Shown in pieces: positions 51,069 through 60,958 of a stretch of DNA of 64,000 nt (positions within the stretch are counted from its first letter, which is position 1; each line of letters begins with the position of its first letter). The translations under genes and the position numbers were made by a program. A model generated the notes under the pieces. That model had not been told where the DNA came from and searched no databases. It was given only the letters and a program-made list of their open reading frames with translations. This DNA comes from Flectobacillus major DSM 103 (GTDB taxonomy: Bacteria; Bacteroidota; Bacteroidia; Cytophagales; Spirosomataceae): NCBI RefSeq assembly GCF_000427405.1, contig NZ_KE386491.1, forward strand, positions 4,597,812 to 4,661,811, written 5' to 3'.

Positions 51069-52469
51069 ATGAAAATCTCATTTCACGGAGCTGCTCAAAC
51101 GGTTACAGGAAGTAAACATTTGATTACGCTCAAAAATGGCAAAAAGCTATTACTCGACTGTGGTATGTTTCAGGGGCGTGGTGTCGAAACCGAGAGCTTG
51201 AACAAAGAATGGGGCTTTGTACCTGCCGAAATAGACTATATGGTATTGTCGCACGCCCATATCGACCACTCGGGATTGATTCCGAAGCTGGTAAAGGAAG
51301 GATACAAAGGCAAAATATATTGTACTAACCCTACCAAAGATTTAGCCCAAATTCTATTGCTCGACTCAGCTCATATTCAGGAATCAGATGCTAAATTTTT
51401 GAACAAAAAGCGTCGAGACCAAAATAAATCGGCTATTAGCCCACTCTACGATACCCACGACGTAATGTGCTGTTTGATGCGTTTTACGACTGTCGACCTA
51501 GATGAATGGATTCAAATAACCGATGATATTCAGTTGAAATTTACCGAAGCAGGTCATATTTTGGGTGCGGCCGTAGTCAATCTTCGTATCAAAGAAGACG
51601 ATGAAATAAAAAGAATCACGTTTTCGGGCGATATAGGCCGTTATAACGATGCAATTCTCAAATCACCGGCCGAATTTCCGCAAGCCGATGTGATTATTTG
51701 TGAATCCACCTATGGCGATTCGCTACACGATGAGGTGCAGATTTCGGAAACGGAGGTCATAAAACTGATTTATAAAACCTGTGTTGAGCAAGACGGCAAA
51801 CTTATCATTCCAGCCTTTAGTGTAGGGCGTACCCAAGAGCTAGTGTACATGTTGAATCGGCTTATTGAAAGTGCAACGATTCCGGCCCTCAATGTATATG
51901 TCGATAGCCCACTTTCTACCGAAGCCACCCGAATCACCTACAATCACCCCGAATGTTTTAACAAAAAGTTACTTAGGTATATGGAACGAGACGAAAATCC
52001 TTTTGATTTTCCGACGCTACGATATATTACCGAAAAGGAAGTATCGCAAGAACTCAACCAGAAAAAAGAGTCATGTATCATTATTTCGGCGTCGGGGATG
52101 GCCGAAGCAGGGCGTGTCAAACACCATATAGCCAACAATATTCAAAATCCCAAAAACACAATTTTACTGGCAGGGTATTGTGAACCCAATTCGCTGGGTG
52201 GCCGCCTAAAATTAAGACCCGACGTAGTGAAAATATTTGGGGAAGAATACCGTGTAAATGCCACCATTGCCGAAATCAAAAGCTTGTCGGCTCATGCCGA
52301 TTATGAAGATATTTCACAGTTTTTGGCTTGCCAAGACCCCAAGCAAGTACAGCAGTTTTTTGTGGTACATGGCGAACCCCAAGTACAAGAACATTTTAAA
52401 AGAAAACTCATAAAAAAGGGCTTCAACGAAGTATATATTCCTGCTCAGCATCAGGTATTTAATATCTGA
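51069..52469 (+). CDS. Beta-CASP metallo-beta-lactamase-fold RNA nuclease
   Basis: The 466-residue protein has the metallo-beta-lactamase motif SHAHIDHSG (residues 61-69; His62, His64, Asp66 and His67), then GHILGAAVVNL and FSGDIGRYND for metal binding. The CPSF/beta-CASP insertion follows, with VGRTQELVYMLNRL and YVDSPLSTEATRITY. The RNA-specificity block is LLAGYCEPNSLGGRLKLR, and EIKSLSAHADYEDI ends the catalytic core. Relatives are RNase-J-like or CPSF73-like nucleases. The gene begins a region of stress-type genes. A weak Crp/Fnr-type half-site precedes it. Confidence 0.92.
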   Translation: MKISFHGAAQTVTGSKHLITLKNGKKLLLDCGMFQGRGVETESLNKEWGFVPAEIDYMVLSHAHIDHSGLIPKLVKEGYKGKIYCTNPTKDLAQILLLDSAHIQESDAKFLNKKRRDQNKSAISPLYDTHDVMCCLMRFTTVDLDEWIQITDDIQLKFTEAGHILGAAVVNLRIKEDDEIKRITFSGDIGRYNDAILKSPAEFPQADVIICESTYGDSLHDEVQISETEVIKLIYKTCVEQDGKLIIPAFSVGRTQELVYMLNRLIESATIPALNVYVDSPLSTEATRITYNHPECFNKKLLRYMERDENPFDFPTLRYITEKEVSQELNQKKESCIIISASGMAEAGRVKHHIANNIQNPKNTILLAGYCEPNSLGGRLKLRPDVVKIFGEEYRVNATIAEIKSLSAHADYEDISQFLACQDPKQVQQFFVVHGEPQVQEHFKRKLIKKGFNEVYIPAQHQVFNI

Positions 52470-53532: not shown

Positions 53533-53599
53533 AAATATTGATTATAACAAACATGGTTGACGAAAACTTCGTCAACCATGTTTGTTATAATCAATATTT
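53533..53599. repeat. 32-bp perfect inverted repeat at the end of the second universal stress gene
   Basis: Arms 53533-53564 and 53568-53599 are exact reverse complements around a 3-base loop AAC. The right arm contains the stop codon of the minus-strand universal stress gene (53591-53593). It may act as that gene's terminator, yet it is far longer than needed and has only a weak T tract. Such length can form a cruciform or a long double-stranded RNA that is a target for RNase III. Confidence 0.75.
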
Positions 53600-54424
53600 T
53601 TTCTGTAAAACCAACAACGGAATTTGACTGGTAAGAGTTAAGTGTTTCAAAACACTTTCACGAAAAAGCCTTTCTAGCAATCCTTTGGGGCGTTGGGCAA
53701 CCACCACCGCATCGGGTTTTTGATTTTTGATATAGGTATCTATACCCGTAATGGTATCGTCTCGGTGCAAATTCCTGAACACAATACGTTCGCCCTGATA
53801 CTCTTCTTCTAGCATAGCAATAATGTCGCTAGACGGGAATACCTCGGGTGTTAAATACTCTTTGACGTGTACGGCTTTGGTTTGCTCGATACCCAGTAGT
53901 TCGCTAATTTTTATCAATTTATTGATACAGCTTATTTCATCACCTTCCAAATCGGTGGTATATAATACATTTTTGATATTTTGAATTTTGGCATTTTGTG
54001 GTACTACCCATACAGGTATTTGTGCTTTCTGGACAACACTCAGGGCAGTAGACCCAAAAATATTAGACAAAATACCCCCCGTACCAATACTTCCTATTAC
54101 AACAAAATCCACTTCTAGTTTTTCGGTAGCTTCTATAATATTATCTACGGCATTGCCAAATACCAGTTTGGTTTCAATTTCGGCAGAGGTTTGTTGGGTC
54201 ACAAATTGCTTAAATTCTTCCAAGGCATCTTTGGTTTCTTCGAGGGCTTCCTGCATAAGTCCTTGTTGTGGTAAAGGAATCACAAACGGAGTGGTAGATA
54301 CAGGTGGAGCATACGCATGAAGTATGACAATTTTGGCATTGATAAGCTCGGCCAATGATACAGCAAAGTTGGCGGCGTGTTTGGCATTGGCACTAAAGTC
54401 GGTAGGCAGAAGGATTATTTTCAT
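53591..54424 (-). CDS. Universal stress protein, two UspA domains
   Basis: ATG at 54424 (MKIILLPTDFSANAKHAANF) gives 277 residues; a TTG nine bases upstream is less likely. The first UspA domain (1-140) carries VVIGSIGTGGILSNIFGSTALSVVQKAQIPVWV with the G-x-x-G nucleotide motif. The second (145-277) carries AVVVAQRPKGLLERLFRESVLKHL in its place, so only one half may bind ATP. It is divergent from the thioredoxin-like gene and convergent with the other universal stress gene. Upstream sites (54447-54512) suggest Crp/Fnr control. Confidence 0.9.
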   Translation of the reverse strand: MKIILLPTDFSANAKHAANFAVSLAELINAKIVILHAYAPPVSTTPFVIPLPQQGLMQEALEETKDALEEFKQFVTQQTSAEIETKLVFGNAVDNIIEATEKLEVDFVVIGSIGTGGILSNIFGSTALSVVQKAQIPVWVVPQNAKIQNIKNVLYTTDLEGDEISCINKLIKISELLGIEQTKAVHVKEYLTPEVFPSSDIIAMLEEEYQGERIVFRNLHRDDTITGIDTYIKNQKPDAVVVAQRPKGLLERLFRESVLKHLTLTSQIPLLVLQKKY

Positions 54425-54446
54425 GGTTTCCAAAGTTTTATGTAAT

Positions 54447-54589
54447 CAAAGGTGGCTGAAAAAACACACTTGATAGGTGAGTCTGCTCATACCTTTTTCT
54501 GACTTTAATCAGCAATAAGTCAACTGATTAAAGTCATGCTTTTGACCTGCTAAACTCATTCTGATAGCCTTCAATAACTATCATCTTTG
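54447..54589. promoter_or_regulatory. Divergent regulatory region with twin Crp/Fnr-type dyads
   Basis: Two copies of CTGATTAAAGTCA lie in opposite orientation, at 54512-54499 (minus) and 54524-54537 (plus), making a 12-bp perfect inverted repeat around an 11-base spacer. On the minus strand, -7-like CACCTTTG (54454 to 54447, one mismatch) is 58.5 bp from the centre of the minus copy. On the plus strand, CATCTTTG (54582-54589, one mismatch) is 58.5 bp from the centre of the plus copy. So each divergent gene has the same dyad at the same distance. Confidence 0.6.
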
Positions 54590-54624
54590 CTGATAAAACA
54601 GGGGATAAATAAAATAATTATGTT

Positions 54625-54918
54625 ATGGCAAATCACGTACAAATACCAGTCTTGATGCTATTCTATGAATCGCAAAAAGATGGGCTGGACGTTTTTGAAC
54701 AATTGAAGAAAGACAGCCCAAGCATTGCCAGCTACCTTTCTGTAAATGTGAAGAATAATCCAGAGGTAGCAAAAACTTTTAAGGTAGTACAAATTCCGAC
54801 ATTCTTGATTTTGAAGAATGGGAAAGAATGTTGGCGACACAGCGGCGGTACATCCATAGAGCTAATAAAAAATAATTTAGCTTTGATAGAACCTATCAAC
54901 AACGAAGCCTTTATTTAA
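54625..54918 (+). CDS. Thioredoxin-fold protein lacking the CxxC motif
   Basis: The 97-residue protein has the thioredoxin pattern: IPVLMLFYESQKDG, then FKVVQIPTFLILKNGKE with the cis-proline Pro58. The WCGPC site is replaced by YESQKDG and there are only one or so cysteines (Cys in GKECWRHSGG). It therefore cannot do classical dithiol exchange; it could be a binding module or use a single Cys. No signal peptide is seen. The gene is divergent from a universal stress gene with shared Crp/Fnr-type sites. Stop to next start is 93 bases, with a hairpin between. Confidence 0.82.
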   Translation: MANHVQIPVLMLFYESQKDGLDVFEQLKKDSPSIASYLSVNVKNNPEVAKTFKVVQIPTFLILKNGKECWRHSGGTSIELIKNNLALIEPINNEAFI

Positions 54919-54931
54919 AGGGAAAGTACAA

Positions 54932-54968
54932 GGTTTGGGTTTTGTAGTGTGTGTACAAAAGCCAAACC
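54932..54968 (+). terminator. Imperfect hairpin between the thioredoxin-like and L,D-transpeptidase genes
   Basis: Thirteen-base arms (54932-54944 and 54956-54968) pair at all but one position; no T run follows. It may attenuate or process the transcript rather than stop it. Confidence 0.45.
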
Positions 54969-55011
54969 CTCATATTATCAAAATAAAAGCCTACTAAACT
55001 CTATATCAATA

Positions 55012-56589
55012 ATGTTGTTGAGATACTCCTTACTACGCAAACAAACTTTTGTTGCGTCGATACTATGGCTTATAGTATTACTACCGACGGTGTTTTCTGT
55101 AAATGGGCAAACAGAGAAACAGCCCAACGAAACGCTCAAAACGCTTGTCAATCGGCTTTGTTCTGACAAAACTTTTGCAGAACAATGGCAAATCGAAAAC
55201 CCCGAAGATATTAGGTATTTCTATGAAAAAATCAATTATCAACAGGCTTGGCAAGAAACCAACAATCATTATAAAGATGAGTTTTTGTCGGTACTAATCA
55301 AGGCTTCTGATTATGGACTCAACAAAGATAATTACCATTTTGCTTATCTGACAGGGCAAAGCTACCCTACCCTTGAATACGAAGTAGTGCTTACGCATGC
55401 CATGCTGTCTTTTTATCGTGATATTGCCAATGGTATAGGAAATATAGATTTATCGTACAATGGCTTGGGCTATCAGAATCATTGTTTGACCCCGCCGTTG
55501 GTATTGGCCAATACTTACCAGACAGGAAGCGTGTTGGATGTGCTGTCTTATTTGCAACCACAGTCGTATGGGTATCAATCTACCCAAAAGCTGTTGGTAA
55601 GGTTGAATCAATTTTTAGAAAAAGACGACTTTCGTGAGCCAGCTATTTTCTACACAAAAAACCTCGCTGAAAACCAAGAACTCATCAGAAAACTAATGTA
55701 TCTGGGTTTTTTGCCTAATGTAGATTTGGCCGAAAAACAACGAGAAGGAATAGTCTTGAATGCCCTTAAAGGCTATCAATCTTTGTACGACTTGGTGCCA
55801 GATGGTATTTTGGGGCCTGCCACAATGGGCAAATTGTCTATTCCACTCAGCCGTTTAAGAAAACAACTGATTATCAATCTGAACCGTTGGAGAGTACTAA
55901 ATTGCCTTGATAATCAGCGGTATATCATGATTAATATTCCTTCGGCATCGTTGTCGATGTACGACCGTGACAGCTTGCTAATTCGGATGAAAACGGTGGT
56001 CGGAAAACCCGCCACACCCACACCAACCCTTTGTACACAAATCGACCAGATTACCTTTTTCCCTTACTTTTATGTACCTCAAGATATGGCCATCAACGAG
56101 CTGTTGCCTGTACAACAGCGAGACCCTACTTTTTTTGAAAATAATGGTTATCAGTTATTAAGCACCAAAGGAGAAGTGATAGAACCTAGTACCGTAAACT
56201 GGGCAGAGCTATCCAAAACGAAATTTCCTTATTCGGTAAGGCAAGTGGCAGGTTGTGATAACTCATTAGGAATTGTCAAATTCGATTTCAAAAGCCCTTA
56301 TCCTTTGTATTTGCACGATACCAATCGAAAAGACTTATTTCGGAAAAATAAACGCTATTTGAGCAATGCTTGTATTCGGATAGAAAAACCTTATGAATTG
56401 GCTACTATTTTGTTTCAAGACCGCAATTTGGTAGACGAATTTGTTCAAAAGCGATTTGATACCAATGTGAGTTCAACGGCCCTTGATGTGGATAAACCCA
56501 CCAAATTGTTTATTACTTACATTACTGTCGATGTCGACGAATTTGGGAGTTTGGTGATTTATGATGATATCTATCAAAAAGATTTGTAG
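55012..56589 (+). CDS. YcbB-type L,D-transpeptidase
   Basis: ATG at 55012 (MLLRYSLLRKQTF) gives 525 residues with a signal segment (about 14-35). An N-terminal scaffold (about 40-220) resembles YcbB, with ENPEDIRYFYEKINYQQAWQ. A peptidoglycan-binding-like domain has LKGYQSLYDLVPDGILGPAT, and a YkuD catalytic domain spans about 305-505 with YIMINIPSASLSMYDRDS. His435 in YLHDTNRKDLF and Cys454 in SNACIRIE are the catalytic pair; the usual SHGC or SSGC is SNAC here. It would form 3-3 cross-links in peptidoglycan. It follows the thioredoxin-like gene in the same direction, within the stress cluster. Confidence 0.88.
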   Translation: MLLRYSLLRKQTFVASILWLIVLLPTVFSVNGQTEKQPNETLKTLVNRLCSDKTFAEQWQIENPEDIRYFYEKINYQQAWQETNNHYKDEFLSVLIKASDYGLNKDNYHFAYLTGQSYPTLEYEVVLTHAMLSFYRDIANGIGNIDLSYNGLGYQNHCLTPPLVLANTYQTGSVLDVLSYLQPQSYGYQSTQKLLVRLNQFLEKDDFREPAIFYTKNLAENQELIRKLMYLGFLPNVDLAEKQREGIVLNALKGYQSLYDLVPDGILGPATMGKLSIPLSRLRKQLIINLNRWRVLNCLDNQRYIMINIPSASLSMYDRDSLLIRMKTVVGKPATPTPTLCTQIDQITFFPYFYVPQDMAINELLPVQQRDPTFFENNGYQLLSTKGEVIEPSTVNWAELSKTKFPYSVRQVAGCDNSLGIVKFDFKSPYPLYLHDTNRKDLFRKNKRYLSNACIRIEKPYELATILFQDRNLVDEFVQKRFDTNVSSTALDVDKPTKLFITYITVDVDEFGSLVIYDDIYQKDL

Positions 56590-56612: not shown

Positions 56613-56674
56613 CTGATATTCATCCTGTTTGAACTTACAACAACCATATACCTTTGTAGAGTAATCAATTGATT
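56613..56674 (+). promoter_or_regulatory. Crp/Fnr-type dyad, promoter and palindrome before the first small paralogue
   Basis: CTGAT-ATTC-ATCCT (56613-56626) matches TTGAT-N4-ATCAA in 7 of 10 positions. TACCTTTG (56649-56656) is an exact -7 element; its end is 36.5 bp from the dyad centre, the same as before the universal stress gene at 52585. A perfect palindrome AATCAATTGATT (56663-56674) covers the likely start site and could bind a repressor or hold reversed half-sites. Confidence 0.55.
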
Positions 56675-56719: not shown

Positions 56720-57127
56720 ATGACAACTACCACCAACCTCGAAGTTGACCGTACTTTCAAATATCAATTTTACCATCGTGAAAATAGTACTTGGTTAACG
56801 TCTTTAAGTTTTTATAAAGATGAAATTACGTATTTCTCTGGCCTATTGAGCAACGTAAAAGAAAAGAATACAAGCTTAGAAATAAGTAATGAAATATTTA
56901 TTTTTGAACGTGAGCTTAGCAACCTACAAAGCACTATCGAAGGTGTAACACAGTCGATTATTGAGGAGGAGTGGGGTTTTGACGACGACGCTACAGGCAA
57001 AGACTTTTTGTTGGGCGAAGAAATTTATAGCCGCCATGTGGGCATTAGAGAACGTTTTCAAGAGACTGAAAAAACCTTTTTAGATACAAAACATCGTTTA
57101 TATCGCTTTTTGTGCAAAGCACTTTAA
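56720..57127 (+). CDS. Small helical protein, first of three paralogues
   Basis: The 135-residue soluble protein belongs to no family I recognise. With the next two genes it aligns without gaps from His19 to the end. Shared residues include His19, Glu21, Trp25, Ser28, Leu29, Phe31, Glu35, Ile36, Phe39, Glu84, Lys94, Phe96, His106, Arg110, Glu117, Phe120, Lys124, His125, Tyr128 and Phe130. Helices are predicted throughout, so a four-helix bundle is plausible, and the conserved His/Glu set could bind a metal or haem (inference). A Crp/Fnr-type promoter and its own terminator make it a separate transcript. Confidence 0.75.
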   Translation: MTTTTNLEVDRTFKYQFYHRENSTWLTSLSFYKDEITYFSGLLSNVKEKNTSLEISNEIFIFERELSNLQSTIEGVTQSIIEEEWGFDDDATGKDFLLGEEIYSRHVGIRERFQETEKTFLDTKHRLYRFLCKAL

Positions 57128-57160
57128 GCCAAAATTTTTACTTGTTAGTTTGGGGTATAG

Positions 57161-57192
57161 AACGGTTTTCTTGCTATAGAAAACCGTTTTTC
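57161..57192 (+). terminator. Rho-independent terminator after the first small paralogue
   Basis: Ten-base arms AACGGTTTTC (57161-57170) and GAAAACCGTT (57179-57188) are followed by TTTC. It separates the first paralogue from the next two. Confidence 0.9.
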
Positions 57193-57208
57193 ATCAACCT
57201 CATAAGAT

Positions 57209-57274
57209 TTGATTTTTATCAGTTGTTGTTATGATGAATGTTATAACAAGTATCAAAGAAAAAAAGGAACTTTG
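57209..57274 (+). promoter_or_regulatory. Near-consensus FNR-type dyad before the second small paralogue
   Basis: TTGAT-TTTT-ATCAG (57209-57222) matches TTGAT-N4-ATCAA in 9 of 10 positions. A -7-like GAACTTTG (57267-57274, one mismatch) ends 58.5 bp from its centre, the same spacing as both genes of the divergent pair at 54.5 kb. Confidence 0.6.
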
Positions 57275-57297
57275 AATTAGTAAAAAACATAAAAGAC

Positions 57298-57708
57298 ATG
57301 CAAACTGCTCAATACATACAAGCGGAAGGTTCGTTGAAATTTCAACTGTATCATCGAGAAAACCAACAATGGTTATCAAGTTTAGTGTTTTTTAAAGAGG
57401 AAATTCAATATTTCGATAGCTGGCTCGAACGCCTCCAAGCCCTCAATTTGTCGAAAGTATTACAAGATGAATGGATTGTGCTGGAAGAGCGACTTGGACA
57501 GCAACGTTTAGAAACCCTCGAATTATTGAAAGCAATAGAACATGAGGAGTTTTTGTTTGGCCTTGAAAGTCAGCAAAAGGATTTTCAATTAGGGGAAGAA
57601 CACTTTTTGAAACATCGTAATTTTAGAATTAGGTACCATGCTTTAGAGCGCGATTTTCTGACAACTAAGCATGATTTCTATGAGTTTATGACACATATTA
57701 TGGATTAA
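57298..57708 (+). CDS. Small helical protein, second of three paralogues
   Basis: The 136-residue protein aligns gap-free with the first paralogue (same numbering). It keeps His19, Glu21, Glu35, Glu84, His106 and His125 and adds His82, His102 and His114, so it is richest in histidine. The helical pattern FKEEIQYFDSWLERL and LEERLGQQRLETLELL suggests a bundle. No known family is recognised. It is 30 bases from the third paralogue and is likely cotranscribed with it from the FNR-type promoter at 57209-57274. Confidence 0.75.
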   Translation: MQTAQYIQAEGSLKFQLYHRENQQWLSSLVFFKEEIQYFDSWLERLQALNLSKVLQDEWIVLEERLGQQRLETLELLKAIEHEEFLFGLESQQKDFQLGEEHFLKHRNFRIRYHALERDFLTTKHDFYEFMTHIMD

Positions 57709-57738
57709 AACGATTTAGTTTACCAATAATCTAAGGCT

Positions 57739-58119
57739 ATGGAAACGATGAAATTTGAATTATGCCATCACGAAAATACCAAGTGGGCTGAGTCTTTGAC
57801 GTTTTACGCCGATGAGATAAAGTTTTTTGTAAAAACTTTACGGGAGGTTTTGGATAGAAATACCAATAGTGAGGTGACTCTACAAGCCAATCATTACCTG
57901 ACACTTTTTACCAAAGCAGAACAAGAAATAGAAGATCTTGCTATTGGAATTCTTCATCAAGAAGCTGAATTTGCTGAATATGCACAAGGAAAAGCTTTTT
58001 TGTTTGACCAAAAAGTAGCGATGATTCATGAGCGACGACGCTCGGCGTTTGAAACCCTCGAAAAGGATTTTACCATTCATAAGCACGAATTGTATAAGTT
58101 TTTGACTAAAGTGCTATGA
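57739..58119 (+). CDS. Small helical protein, third of three paralogues
   Basis: The 126-residue protein lacks about nine N-terminal residues of the others; with an offset of nine it aligns without gaps to the end. His10, Glu12, Trp16, Glu26, Glu75, His97 and His116 match His19, Glu21, Trp25, Glu35, Glu84, His106 and His125. The motif CHHENTKWAESLTFYADEI is close to the others, but the middle (about 30-70) has diverged, so duplication is not recent. No signal peptide or membrane part. A strong terminator ends the operon. Confidence 0.75.
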   Translation: METMKFELCHHENTKWAESLTFYADEIKFFVKTLREVLDRNTNSEVTLQANHYLTLFTKAEQEIEDLAIGILHQEAEFAEYAQGKAFLFDQKVAMIHERRRSAFETLEKDFTIHKHELYKFLTKVL

Positions 58120-58234: not shown

Positions 58235-60481
58235 CTACAATTTTGTAGCATCAGTACCAAAAGGCTGATTGTAATACCTTTTACCAGTAGATTTATACAA
58301 AGCATTGGCAACAGCTCCGAACACAGGAGGGAAAGGCGGCTCGCCAAGACCCGTTGGGTCGATGTTGTTTTGTACAAAATGAACGTCTATTTCTTTGGGT
58401 GCTTCGTTATGACGAATGATGCGGTAATTATGGAAATTACTTTGTTCGGCTGCTCCGTTTTTGTGGGTCAATGCCCCGTAAAACGCATTACCGATGCCAT
58501 CCACAACTGCTCCTTGTACCATGTTTTTGGCGGCATCGGGGTTTACGACAATACCGCAATCAATGGCACTGGTCACTTTTTCAACATAAGGCTGACCGTC
58601 ACGCATGACTATATCCACCACATGACCAGCGTAAGAATTATGACAGAAATAAGCGGCTACACCACGCTTTTTACCCTTATTTTCGGGTTTGTCCCAGCCC
58701 GATTTTTCTCTAAGCAATTCCAATACGCCAGCGTATCGGTCGGCATCGTATTCGTTGTTTTTACCTACTGGATTTTCTTTGGCACGTTTCAATAAATCCA
58801 GACGAAAGGCGATTGGGTCTTTGCCCATCGCTTCGGCTACTTCGTCTAAAAATGACTGTTCGGCCGCAGCGTTGAAGTTTGAGCGAGGTGCTCGGAAAGC
58901 CCCAATGGTAATATTAGAAGGAATTTCCCAAGCCTCAGCCAAATAATTATCCACCGCACCAGCAGGGAAACGATTGGCATGAATAGGATTTTCGGGAATA
59001 CCGCCCCCTTTTACGTGAAAAGCAATCAGGTTTTTGTTTGCGTCTAAAGCCGCACGGTAAGTAGCCGTGTACATCGGGCGATAGATGCCGTAAGTCATAT
59101 CGTCTTCACGGGTATAAATCAATTTGACAGGAGCTTTCAGGCGTTGAGAGATGCGAGCCGCTTCGTACACATATTGCCCATAAGCTCTACGACCAAAACC
59201 ACCGCCCATACGGGTCATCTGAATCTCTATTTTATCGGCAGGTAAATTCAAGATTTTTGAAAGTGTTGGCTCCATCCAGCCCGGTGCTTGTAAAGGCCCA
59301 GCTACCAAAGCTTTATCTTCTGAAACATGGGCGAAGAAGTTCATCGGCTCCATGGTATTATGGGCCAAAAACGGAGCGTTATAAGTCCGTTCAATCACCA
59401 GAGCGGCATTTTTGAAAGCCGTTTCTGGGTCGCCATCTTTTCTTAATTGCTGTGCTGGTTTTTTAGCATATTCAGCCATTAATGCCAATTGGTCGCTTGT
59501 GGTTTCTAACCTTCCTGGAATGGTTACTTCTCTTTTTCCCCCTCGTCCCATCATGGTTTCTTTGATGTCGCCAGTGGGTTCCCATTGGGCTTTGATTTTT
59601 TTACGAGCGTTCATTACTTCCCAAGTAGATTTACCCACAATGGCAATCATTTCGTTGGAAGTACGGGTATCAAAACCACCTTGTTCAAAACCATCGTCAT
59701 AGAGTTTGAAGCTAAAAATATCCTTGATTCCCGGCATTTTTAAAGCTTGGGAAGCATCAAAGGATTTGAGTTTCATCCCAAAAGCAGGCGGATGCTGAAT
59801 CATGGCAATGAGCATTCCGTCAACTTTATAATCTATGCCAAAAAGCGGTTTTCCCGTAACTACTTTTACTCCTTCTGTATTTTTCTTTGAATGACTAACG
59901 ATAGAAAAATCTTTTGGCGTTTTTAGTTGTACTTCTTTCGGAACGGGAATAGTAGCCGCCTTGCTCGCCATTTCGCCATACTTTGCCGATTTTCCGCTTG
60001 AATGCGACAAAACACCTGCTTGGGTTGTAATTTCACTGGCTGGTACGCCCCACGTCTGAGCCGCCGCCTCAATAAGCATTTGTCTTGCCGAAGCTCCTGC
60101 GTTTCTCAAAGGTTTCCAGTACATTCTTACAGAATTACTACCGCCTGTGAATTGCATTCCTAATTTTACGTTATCGTGTGGTCCCATTTCTACGACCACG
60201 TTTTTCCAATCTACGTCCAATTCTTCGGCTACCATCATCGGGAGCGAAGTCATGACATTTTGACCAAATTCGGGATTTGGACAAATAATTTTGATAACAT
60301 TATCGGGTGTAATTTTGATATAACCGTTGAGTTCATTCCATTGGTCTGGCAAATTCATTGTAGCCATTTTGTCGGCAGCTTGAGCATTGACTAACCAACT
60401 AAAACTCAGCATGAGCCCACCACCTGCCAATGCAGAAGACCGTAAGAAATCTCTTCTACTGTGTGATTTTATATTTTTCAT
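58235..60481 (-). CDS. Molybdopterin-binding hydroxylase large subunit (isoquinoline 1-oxidoreductase beta type)
   Basis: The 748-residue protein begins with a Tat signal (SRRDFLRSSALAGGGLMLSFS), so it is exported folded with its cofactor. It belongs to the xanthine-dehydrogenase/aldehyde-oxidoreductase family without FAD domain: VKIICPNPEFGQNVMTSLPMM, MTRMGGGFGRRAYGQYVYEA, TIGAFRAPRSNFNAAAEQSF and GLGEPPFPPVFGAVANAL are its molybdopterin-contact blocks. The last Glu (in LGEPPFPP) is the catalytic base. It works with the adjacent [2Fe-2S] subunit, 10 bases upstream in the same transcript. The substrate is an aldehyde or N-heterocycle, unproved. Confidence 0.93.
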   Translation of the reverse strand: MKNIKSHSRRDFLRSSALAGGGLMLSFSWLVNAQAADKMATMNLPDQWNELNGYIKITPDNVIKIICPNPEFGQNVMTSLPMMVAEELDVDWKNVVVEMGPHDNVKLGMQFTGGSNSVRMYWKPLRNAGASARQMLIEAAAQTWGVPASEITTQAGVLSHSSGKSAKYGEMASKAATIPVPKEVQLKTPKDFSIVSHSKKNTEGVKVVTGKPLFGIDYKVDGMLIAMIQHPPAFGMKLKSFDASQALKMPGIKDIFSFKLYDDGFEQGGFDTRTSNEMIAIVGKSTWEVMNARKKIKAQWEPTGDIKETMMGRGGKREVTIPGRLETTSDQLALMAEYAKKPAQQLRKDGDPETAFKNAALVIERTYNAPFLAHNTMEPMNFFAHVSEDKALVAGPLQAPGWMEPTLSKILNLPADKIEIQMTRMGGGFGRRAYGQYVYEAARISQRLKAPVKLIYTREDDMTYGIYRPMYTATYRAALDANKNLIAFHVKGGGIPENPIHANRFPAGAVDNYLAEAWEIPSNITIGAFRAPRSNFNAAAEQSFLDEVAEAMGKDPIAFRLDLLKRAKENPVGKNNEYDADRYAGVLELLREKSGWDKPENKGKKRGVAAYFCHNSYAGHVVDIVMRDGQPYVEKVTSAIDCGIVVNPDAAKNMVQGAVVDGIGNAFYGALTHKNGAAEQSNFHNYRIIRHNEAPKEIDVHFVQNNIDPTGLGEPPFPPVFGAVANALYKSTGKRYYNQPFGTDATKL

Positions 60482-60490
60482 AGTCTTTTC

Positions 60491-60958
60491 CTATTTAGCG
60501 TTTGATGTTTTAGCTGCCGTTTTGATTGCTTCTTTAATTCTGAGATAAGTACCACAACGGCAAATATTTCCACTCATAGCGTTGTCAATATCTTCATCGG
60601 TTGGCTTAGGATTACTTTTCAGTAAGGCTGATGCCGACATTATTTGCCCACTTTGGCAATAACCACACTGAGCAACATCGTGTTCGAGCCATGCTTGTTG
60701 AACAGGATGCGTACCTGTTTCAGATAAGCCTTCAATTGTGGTAATGGCAGATTTACCAATAGCTGACACAGGCAATACACATGAACGAGTTGCATTTCCA
60801 TCTACATGAATGGTACAAGCACCACATTGAGCCATACCACAGCCAAACTTAGTGCCAGGCATATTAAGGTAGTCACGTAAAACCCATAAAACTGGGGTTG
60901 ACGAATCAACATCTACGTGCTTTGTTTTTCCGTTTATTTTTAGCGAATATTTTGCCAT
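60491..60958 (-). CDS. [2Fe-2S] subunit of the molybdenum hydroxylase
   Basis: The 155-residue protein carries two 2Fe-2S clusters. The plant-type cluster uses Cys40, Cys45, Cys48 and Cys60 ([17 protein letters not shown]). The second uses Cys98, Cys101, Cys133 and Cys135 (QCGYCQSGQ and [11 protein letters not shown]). This is the IorA/CoxS-type small subunit. It has no signal peptide, so it likely travels with the Tat-exported large subunit. It precedes the large subunit gene by 9 bases, and its promoter element lies at 60994-60987. Confidence 0.95.

What the first reader, a model, noticed from the sequence alone, without database searches (positions are those of the whole stretch)
56720..58119. 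Three tandem paralogues with a conserved His/Glu set, unknown family
The proteins of 135, 136 and 126 residues align without gaps from His19 to the end (third offset by nine). They share His19, Glu21, Trp25, Glu35, Glu84, His106, Lys124 and His125. The helical character and His/Glu set resemble hemerythrin or ferritin-like bundles in style, but no known motif fits. Control by FNR-type sites suggests a role in oxygen, NO or metal handling. This is the best candidate for an undescribed system in the window.
Basis: partly seen in the sequence, partly recalled or inferred. Interest (0 to 1): 0.85.

Follow-up and report, generated by a model that had tools for sequence, protein, structure and literature searches.

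The report
Unnamed Bacteroidota helical-bundle stress protein family
Three neighbouring genes encode related small proteins of an unnamed family that is common in Bacteroidota, is predicted to form three-helix bundles, and appears to be switched on by the kind of regulator these bacteria use when oxygen or energy runs short.

Summary
In detail: three tandem genes (135, 136, 126 aa; 30-35% identical) sharing every listed residue. They match no Pfam or NCBIfam model at its cut-off and no solved structure. They belong to a large unnamed family found in 158 of 395 sampled genomes of the class (own genome included). AlphaFold gives an up-down-up three-helix bundle (pLDDT 86 and 92). In 168 members the two strongest covarying pairs of 7,140 are 19-84 and 83-106, His/Glu positions at one level of the bundle. 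A Crp/Fnr-type site (TGA-N6-TCA) precedes 42 of 72 family genes against 85 of 450 neighbouring genes in a held-out set; no other spacing from 2 to 12 is enriched. Universal stress protein genes lie near 26 of 120 loci, about 2.4 expected. In the window the site precedes genes 2-3 and is kept in five loci. So this is a new family in a Crp/Fnr-type, probably low-oxygen or low-energy, regulon. Metal binding is possible but unproven: the two residue pairs vary independently, which argues against one four-ligand site. Hemerythrin or ferritin membership is not supported.

The parts
56720..57127 (+). family gene 1, 135 aa; predicted three-helix bundle H6-49, H53-92, H100-134
57298..57708 (+). family gene 2, 136 aa (structure not predicted separately)
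57739..58119 (+). family gene 3, 126 aa, 30 bp after gene 2; predicted three-helix bundle H2-40, H44-82, H91-125
57210..57221 (+). Crp/Fnr-type site TGATTTTTATCA, centre about 82 bp before the gene 2 start; TGA-N6-TCA kept in all five loci aligned
57161..57191 (+). largely conserved inverted repeat (AACGGTTTTC / GAAAACCGTT) followed by a few T between genes 1 and 2; possible terminator, so gene 1 may be a separate unit. The terminator scan itself listed none.
   Evidence: sequence, conservation; one search found 0
56614..56625 (+). degenerate site TGA-N6-TC(C/T) upstream of gene 1, at the same alignment columns in five loci; not an exact match
53591..54433 (-). universal stress protein (two Usp stretches), with four TGA-N6-TCA matches in its upstream gap 54434-54624
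54625..54918 (+). thioredoxin-like protein, divergent from the Usp gene across the same sites; kept near the family genes in L005-L008 and L086
52585..53424 (+). second universal stress protein gene with two TGA-N6-TCA matches, one (GTGATTATCATCAT) about 68 bp upstream
51069..52469 (+). metallo-beta-lactamase / beta-CASP / RMMBL protein, a recurrent neighbour (5 of 125 loci, this window included)
54949..56589 (+). L,D-transpeptidase-like protein (YkuD), clustered with genes beside the triplet in L005, L007 and L008; link to function unknown

Best explanation
The genes encode three paralogues of an unnamed Bacteroidota family of small proteins predicted to be three-helix bundles, without an obvious export signal by eye (not tested). 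Shown by calls: family, distribution, predicted fold, covariation, site enrichment. Inferred: a Crp/Fnr-type activator (the Crp-like regulator in the oxidase-linked block of the own genome and/or a receiver-Crp two-component regulator) switches the family on together with universal stress proteins when oxygen or energy is limiting. My best guess at the biochemistry is that the His/Glu layer at one end of the bundle (H19-E84 and E/H83-H106) binds a ligand, most simply a transition-metal ion, so that the protein buffers or senses it during the switch to low oxygen. Layer probabilities: identity and family 0.95; Crp/Fnr-type regulon 0.85; ligand or metal binding 0.35. The confidence below is for the whole chain.
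For: Held-out set of 80 loci: TGA-N6-TCA upstream of 42 of 72 family genes vs 85 of 450 controls (OR 6.0, p 1.9e-11); spacings 2-5 and 7-12 not enriched. First set after dropping four near-duplicate loci: 28 of 48 vs 49 of 289 (p 7e-9); Usp genes 13 of 22. Usp near 26 of 120 non-genus loci, about 2.4 expected. A receiver-plus-Crp-like regulator of 343-355 aa occurs in 8 of 125 loci and a Crp/Fnr-like protein of 235 aa in a ninth (domains scanned for two of the eight). Its matches co-occur with the family (44 both, 25 regulator only, 4 family only, 26 neither of 99 genomes; p 2.9e-6) and lie within about 6 kb of it in 7 of 44 genomes (hand count). In the own genome a Crp-like gene and a divergent P-type ATPase gene share two such sites, near a globin and a COX1-type oxidase gene. 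The two top covarying pairs are 19-84 and 83-106, at one level of the predicted bundle.
Against: No metal, ligand or partner was shown. Pair 19-84 and pair 83-106 are each associated within themselves, but not with each other (19 vs 106 p 0.11; 19 vs 83 p 0.82; 84 vs 106 p 0.18), unlike one four-ligand site. On well-supported tree branches only 4-8 independent contrasts exist; the second residue goes the same way in about 2.4-2.6 of them, the other way in 0.0-0.4 and does not differ in the rest, which is not significant. 30 of 72 held-out family genes lack the exact site, held-out Usp genes alone reach only 5 of 14, and control sites also concentrate 40-100 bp before starts (99 of 193, against 64 of 90 family sites). 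Gene 1 lacks an exact site. The loci are not phylogenetically independent. No expression data were available. Model coordinates could not be read, so the cluster is inferred from helix register and covariation.
Confidence: 0.38

Rival explanations
1. Same regulon and fold, but the protein is a stress-induced adaptor or scaffold acting through protein-protein contacts. The His/Glu pairs are structural polar pairs that fix the register of the helices and bind nothing.
For: The two pairs vary independently. The closest Foldseek hits include generic or designed bundles such as hydrogen-bond-network designs. F31, E35 and K/R124 are more invariant than the His residues. Paralogues in tandem could make heteromers (inference).
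Against: H19 (81%), E84 (70%) and H106 (70%) are kept unusually well for mere structural pairs (a judgement, no control was run).
Confidence: 0.37
2. A hemerythrin-like or ferritin-like di-iron protein.
For: Helical, with a His/Glu set and probable Crp/Fnr-type control.
Against: Neither family among the Pfam matches at E 0.01 in 43 members. Three helices instead of four. The His/Glu motifs of these families (recalled) are absent from the conserved columns.
Confidence: 0.04
3. A phosphotransfer (Hpt-like) partner of the nearby histidine kinases and receiver-Crp regulators.
For: Helical bundle with conserved His; histidine kinases (14 of 125 loci) and receiver-Crp regulators recur nearby; one Hpt structure is among weak Foldseek hits (E 0.61).
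Against: No Hpt match at E 0.01 in Pfam. H19 and H106 sit at covarying, probably buried positions. H19 is replaced in 23 of 166 members scored.
Confidence: 0.05
4. The upstream site is read by a carbon- or energy-sensing Crp-type regulator and the proteins have nothing to do with oxygen, NO or metals.
For: Crp and Fnr sites share TGA-N6-TCA (recalled). [quoted passage not shown] Oxidase genes are near only 4 of 125 loci.
Against: Same site type at the own genome's P-type ATPase promoter in a block with a COX1-type oxidase gene and a globin.
Confidence: 0.16

Closest known systems
Usp / Hsp20 / cbb3 oxidase genes of oxygen-limitation regulons (FNR, Anr, FixK, DosR type; recalled)
   Same: shared Crp/Fnr-type sites with Usp genes and shared neighbourhood
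   Different: no Usp or Hsp20 match among the family's Pfam hits and no known function
Hemerythrin (PF01814) and ferritin-like di-iron bundles
   Same: small all-helical proteins with conserved His and Glu
   Different: three helices, no profile match, their recalled motifs absent
De novo three- and four-helix bundles (5j0l, 8d9p, 5vju, 9rgw)
   Same: among the best Foldseek matches of the models; some carry buried polar networks, haem or metal by their titles
   Different: E-values 0.03-0.5 and designed proteins: resemblance of shape only, no kinship
Flavobacterium psychrophilum oxygen-limitation response (PMC9723704, passages seen)
   Same: a Bacteroidota member that raises cbb3 oxidase when oxygen is limiting
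   Different: the main text holds no 'crp' or 'universal stress', and the passages seen do not mention this family

Membership tests
Crp/Fnr-type regulon of oxygen or energy limitation | TGA-N6-TCA site upstream, enriched over control genes | tested here: met
   42/72 vs 85/450, only N6 spacing; window gene 2 site kept in five loci
Crp/Fnr-type regulon of oxygen or energy limitation | expression changes with oxygen or energy and depends on the regulator | not testable with these tools
   no expression data
Crp/Fnr-type regulon of oxygen or energy limitation | own genome holds a fitting regulator whose neighbouring promoter bears the same site type | tested here: met
   L253: 233-aa cNMP + Crp-HTH protein divergent from a P-type ATPase, sites between; receiver-Crp regulator 79% identical to that of L086. 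That this regulator binds the window site is not shown.
Hemerythrin PF01814 | match to the Pfam model | tested here: not met
   no such hit in the 3 window proteins or in 43 members at E 0.01; the list was capped at 25 of 39 families
Hemerythrin PF01814 | four-helix bundle with His and carboxylate ligands in its own motif (recalled) | tested here: not met
   three helices; conserved set differs
Ferritin-like | two E-x-x-H motifs in a four-helix bundle (recalled) | tested here: not met
   no conserved E-x-x-H; three helices
Hpt phosphotransfer domain | Pfam match and one exposed conserved His | tested here: not met
   no match at E 0.01; His residues in covarying, probably buried pairs
Metal-binding protein (any) | bound metal | not testable with these tools
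   sequence and covariation only
Metal-binding protein with one site of four ligands | candidate ligands kept or lost as one set | tested here: not met
   pairs 19-84 and 83-106 covary within themselves but not with each other

The most novel reading that the evidence does not exclude
A new, Bacteroidota-wide family of three-helix-bundle proteins that bind a metal ion (or haem) through a buried His/Glu layer made by all three helices, and that act as a dedicated metal or oxygen/NO buffer or sensor in the microaerobic switch of this phylum.
Probability: 0.25. Interest if true: 0.78.

Novelty: new variant of a known kind. Interest (0 to 1): 0.52.

Why it matters
A family present in about 40% of the sampled genomes of its class (158 of 395) has no model above cut-off in the Pfam and NCBIfam libraries searched, yet is tied by a sharp regulatory signal to a Crp/Fnr-type, probably low-oxygen or low-energy, response. 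The covarying His/Glu pairs give a short list of residues to test, and the conserved site gives a condition under which to look.

Tried and rejected
Known families: Pfam and NCBIfam on the three window proteins and on 20 members, Pfam and PADLOC on 43 members, and PDB sequences with two profiles gave only scattered weak hits, mostly coiled-coil or other helical proteins and none shared by more than two members where members were tallied. PHROGs was not run, and NCBIfam was not run on the 43. Foldseek against the PDB with both models gave no match at E 0.001 or better; the viral structure library was not searched. Plasmids gave no match for gene 1's protein, the only one tried. A viral-contig scan with one distant member (L018) gave no relative.

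FNR consensus TTGAT-N4-ATCAA scored by mismatches separated the sets only weakly; the looser TGA-N6-TCA separated them well and was then tested on new loci. A phylogenetic sign test for the residue pairs had too few supported contrasts (part of its output was cut), so the covariation rests on ranks in all 168 rows, in an 89-row subset below 50% identity (ranks 1 and 3) and in 20 random halves. In the halves the median rank is 2 for both pairs, but 19-84 fell as far as 59 and 83-106 as far as 105. Another strongly associated pair, 64-78, was not followed.

On checking, two neighbour clusters proved mixed: of the nine loci first counted for the receiver-Crp regulator one (L204) holds a shorter Crp/Fnr-like protein, and of eight P-type ATPase loci only four (L181, L196, L198, L226) begin like CcoI by eye. 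The text was corrected; the odds did not change.

Literature: searches gave no listing that pointed to this family. Two papers were seen in passages only (PMC9723704 and PMC8510549), the rest as listings with abstract beginnings. This is one open library, not proof of absence.

Full report
Observation. The three ORFs are at the stated places. They are genes: orthologues in L005-L008 keep 50-73% identity with pN 0.20-0.33 against pS 0.77-0.95. Those four records are two Flectobacillus, one labelled Cellulophaga sp. and one Cytophagales MAG. Window genes 1 and 3 have their best counterparts in the two tandem genes of G013 (identities 0.42 and 0.45), so that split seems to predate this genus. L006 shows only two of the three.

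Family. No Pfam or NCBIfam model reaches its cut-off for the window proteins. Among 20 members and 43 members (Pfam only) no listed family was matched by more than two members; the list was capped at 25 of 39. PDB sequence searches give only weak, mostly coiled-coil or helical hits. Building the profile outwards gave 20 of 59 genomes with A1 (relatives, E 0.001), 28 of 296 sampled from the phylum with A2 (E 0.001), then with the broadest profile A4 158 of 395 of the class and 67 of 241 of the order, both at E 1e-4; each count includes the own genome. Most listed genomes have one or two copies; the tandem triplet is a local expansion. The own genome has a fourth, distant member at G000:C6:297991-298338.

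Structure. AlphaFold with 14 sequences (3 from the window, 11 from L005-L008) gives an up-down-up three-helix bundle for gene 1 (pLDDT 86.2, pTM 0.77) and gene 3 (pLDDT 92.3, pTM 0.82); gene 2 was not folded. Foldseek against the PDB finds nothing at E 0.001 or better; the leading hits are mostly designed bundles and generic helical proteins.

Conserved residues. In 168 distinct members (296 matched segments before removing repeats and short ones; weighted frequencies): W25 96%, F31 89%, E35 88%, K/R124 98%, H19 81%, E84 70%, H106 70%, H83 50%; H125 only 12%. APC-corrected mutual information over 7,140 position pairs ranks 19-84 first and 83-106 second. With one sequence per 50% identity cluster (89 rows) the ranks are 1 and 3; in 20 random halves the medians are 2 and 2, with worst values 59 and 105. 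Most of these sequences were not in the AlphaFold input. Helix register puts 19, 83/84 and 106 at one level: 24 of 32 inter-helix pairs among the top 40 fall in register against 1,548 of 4,469 overall, with the register offsets set after seeing the data. In the window proteins positions 19/83/84/106 are H/E/E/H, H/E/E/H and H/Q/E/H. Contingency tables: H19 with E/D84 129, 14, 5, 18 (p 1.8e-11); H83 with H106 83, 6, 44, 35 (p 8.9e-9); but 19 with 106 p 0.11, 19 with 83 p 0.82 and 84 with 106 p 0.18. So there are two pairs, each associated within itself, not one obligate set of four. On the tree H19 changes at least 13 times, E/D84 20, H83 21, H106 23; on supported branches there are only 4-8 contrasts, many without a change in the partner, and not significant.

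Regulation. A first scan suggested Crp/Fnr-type sites. In the first set (L005, L008, L095 and L103 dropped as near-duplicates) TGA-N6-TCA lies upstream of 28 of 48 family genes, 13 of 22 Usp genes and 49 of 289 other genes. In 80 newly fetched loci from other genomes it lies upstream of 42 of 72 family genes, 5 of 14 Usp genes and 85 of 450 others (OR 6.0, p 1.9e-11); no other spacing from 2 to 12 is enriched. The genomes are related to one another, so the p-values are too small by an unknown amount. Of 90 family sites 64 are centred 40-100 bp before the start codon, of 193 control sites 99. In the window the exact site is at 57210-57221 before gene 2; TGA-N6-TCA is kept there in all five loci aligned, as is most of an inverted repeat between genes 1 and 2. 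Gene 1 has only a degenerate site. Both window Usp genes carry exact matches, as do the Usp genes in L253, L255, L256 and L257 but not the one in L258.

Neighbours. In 125 loci with 142 family genes, clusters that recur are Usp (31 loci; 26 of the 120 outside the genus, about 2.4 expected from the Usp density in 39 genomes), histidine kinases of several types (14), an uncharacterised protein of about 121 aa (10), receiver-plus-Crp-like regulators (8, plus one Crp/Fnr-like protein in L204), P-type ATPases (8, of which four begin like CcoI by eye), Hsp20 (8), beta-CASP proteins (5), ATP-cone proteins (4) and COX1-type oxidases (4). Only cluster representatives were scanned with Pfam. In L086 (G013) the order is Usp, thioredoxin-like, receiver-Crp regulator, PAS kinase, then two family genes. 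The regulator's matches co-occur with the family in 99 genomes (44 both, 25 regulator only, 4 family only, 26 neither; from 78 and 79), with completeness and kinship not controlled. The own genome has a 79% identical regulator at G000:C6:1432336-1433394, 3.2 Mb from the triplet, in a block with a PAS kinase, a Usp gene, a Crp-HTH protein divergent from a P-type ATPase (CcoI-like by eye) with two sites between them, a globin-family protein and a COX1-type oxidase gene. The Crp-HTH protein begins with C-x2-C-x10-C by eye, as in oxygen-sensing FNR (recalled, not tested).

Reading. The family belongs to a Crp/Fnr-type response of Bacteroidota, probably to oxygen or energy limitation; this part is strong but rests on sequence. 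What the protein does is open. I lean slightly to ligand or metal binding at the polar end of the bundle over a purely structural role, because three of the four positions are kept in 70-81% of the family although two of them are His. The independence of the two pairs is the main result against it. Hemerythrin, ferritin and Hpt membership fail their tests.

Limits. ORFs were called mechanically. Control genes include some that are probably in the same regulon, which makes that contrast conservative. No coordinates of the models could be read. Chromosomes outside the phylum were not searched except for the one scan of genome contigs with the narrow profile A1, which returned only the four near relatives.

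Noticed in passing
L253:6555-9398 (G000:C6 about 1.43 Mb), and a second copy G000:C6:4214013-4215071: Two receiver-plus-Crp-like regulators (the first scanned: receiver, cNMP-binding, Crp-HTH; the second 53% identical to the same query); the first follows a PAS histidine kinase and lies beside Usp, Crp-like, P-type ATPase, globin and oxidase genes. Matches at E 1e-60 in 69 of 99 genomes, own included.
   Followed up: partly
L188:5885-6247, L071:5976-6314 and eight other loci: An unnamed protein of about 113-121 aa, without Pfam match in the two scanned, lies beside the family gene on the same strand in 8 of its 10 loci (beside it on the opposite strand in one, three genes away in another).
   Followed up: partly
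L085:10399-10800 and two other loci: A 134-aa protein without Pfam match recurs in the same stress-gene neighbourhoods.
   Followed up: no
window 58235-60958, minus strand: Molybdenum hydroxylase pair (MoCoBD domains plus 2Fe-2S subunit) just downstream of the triplet and convergent with it; then an AraC-type regulator and an aldo/keto-reductase-like gene (by eye).
   Followed up: no
family alignment, positions 64 and 78: N64 and H78 are strongly associated (96, 18, 6, 48 of 168), a second possible contact or subgroup marker in helix 2.
   Followed up: no
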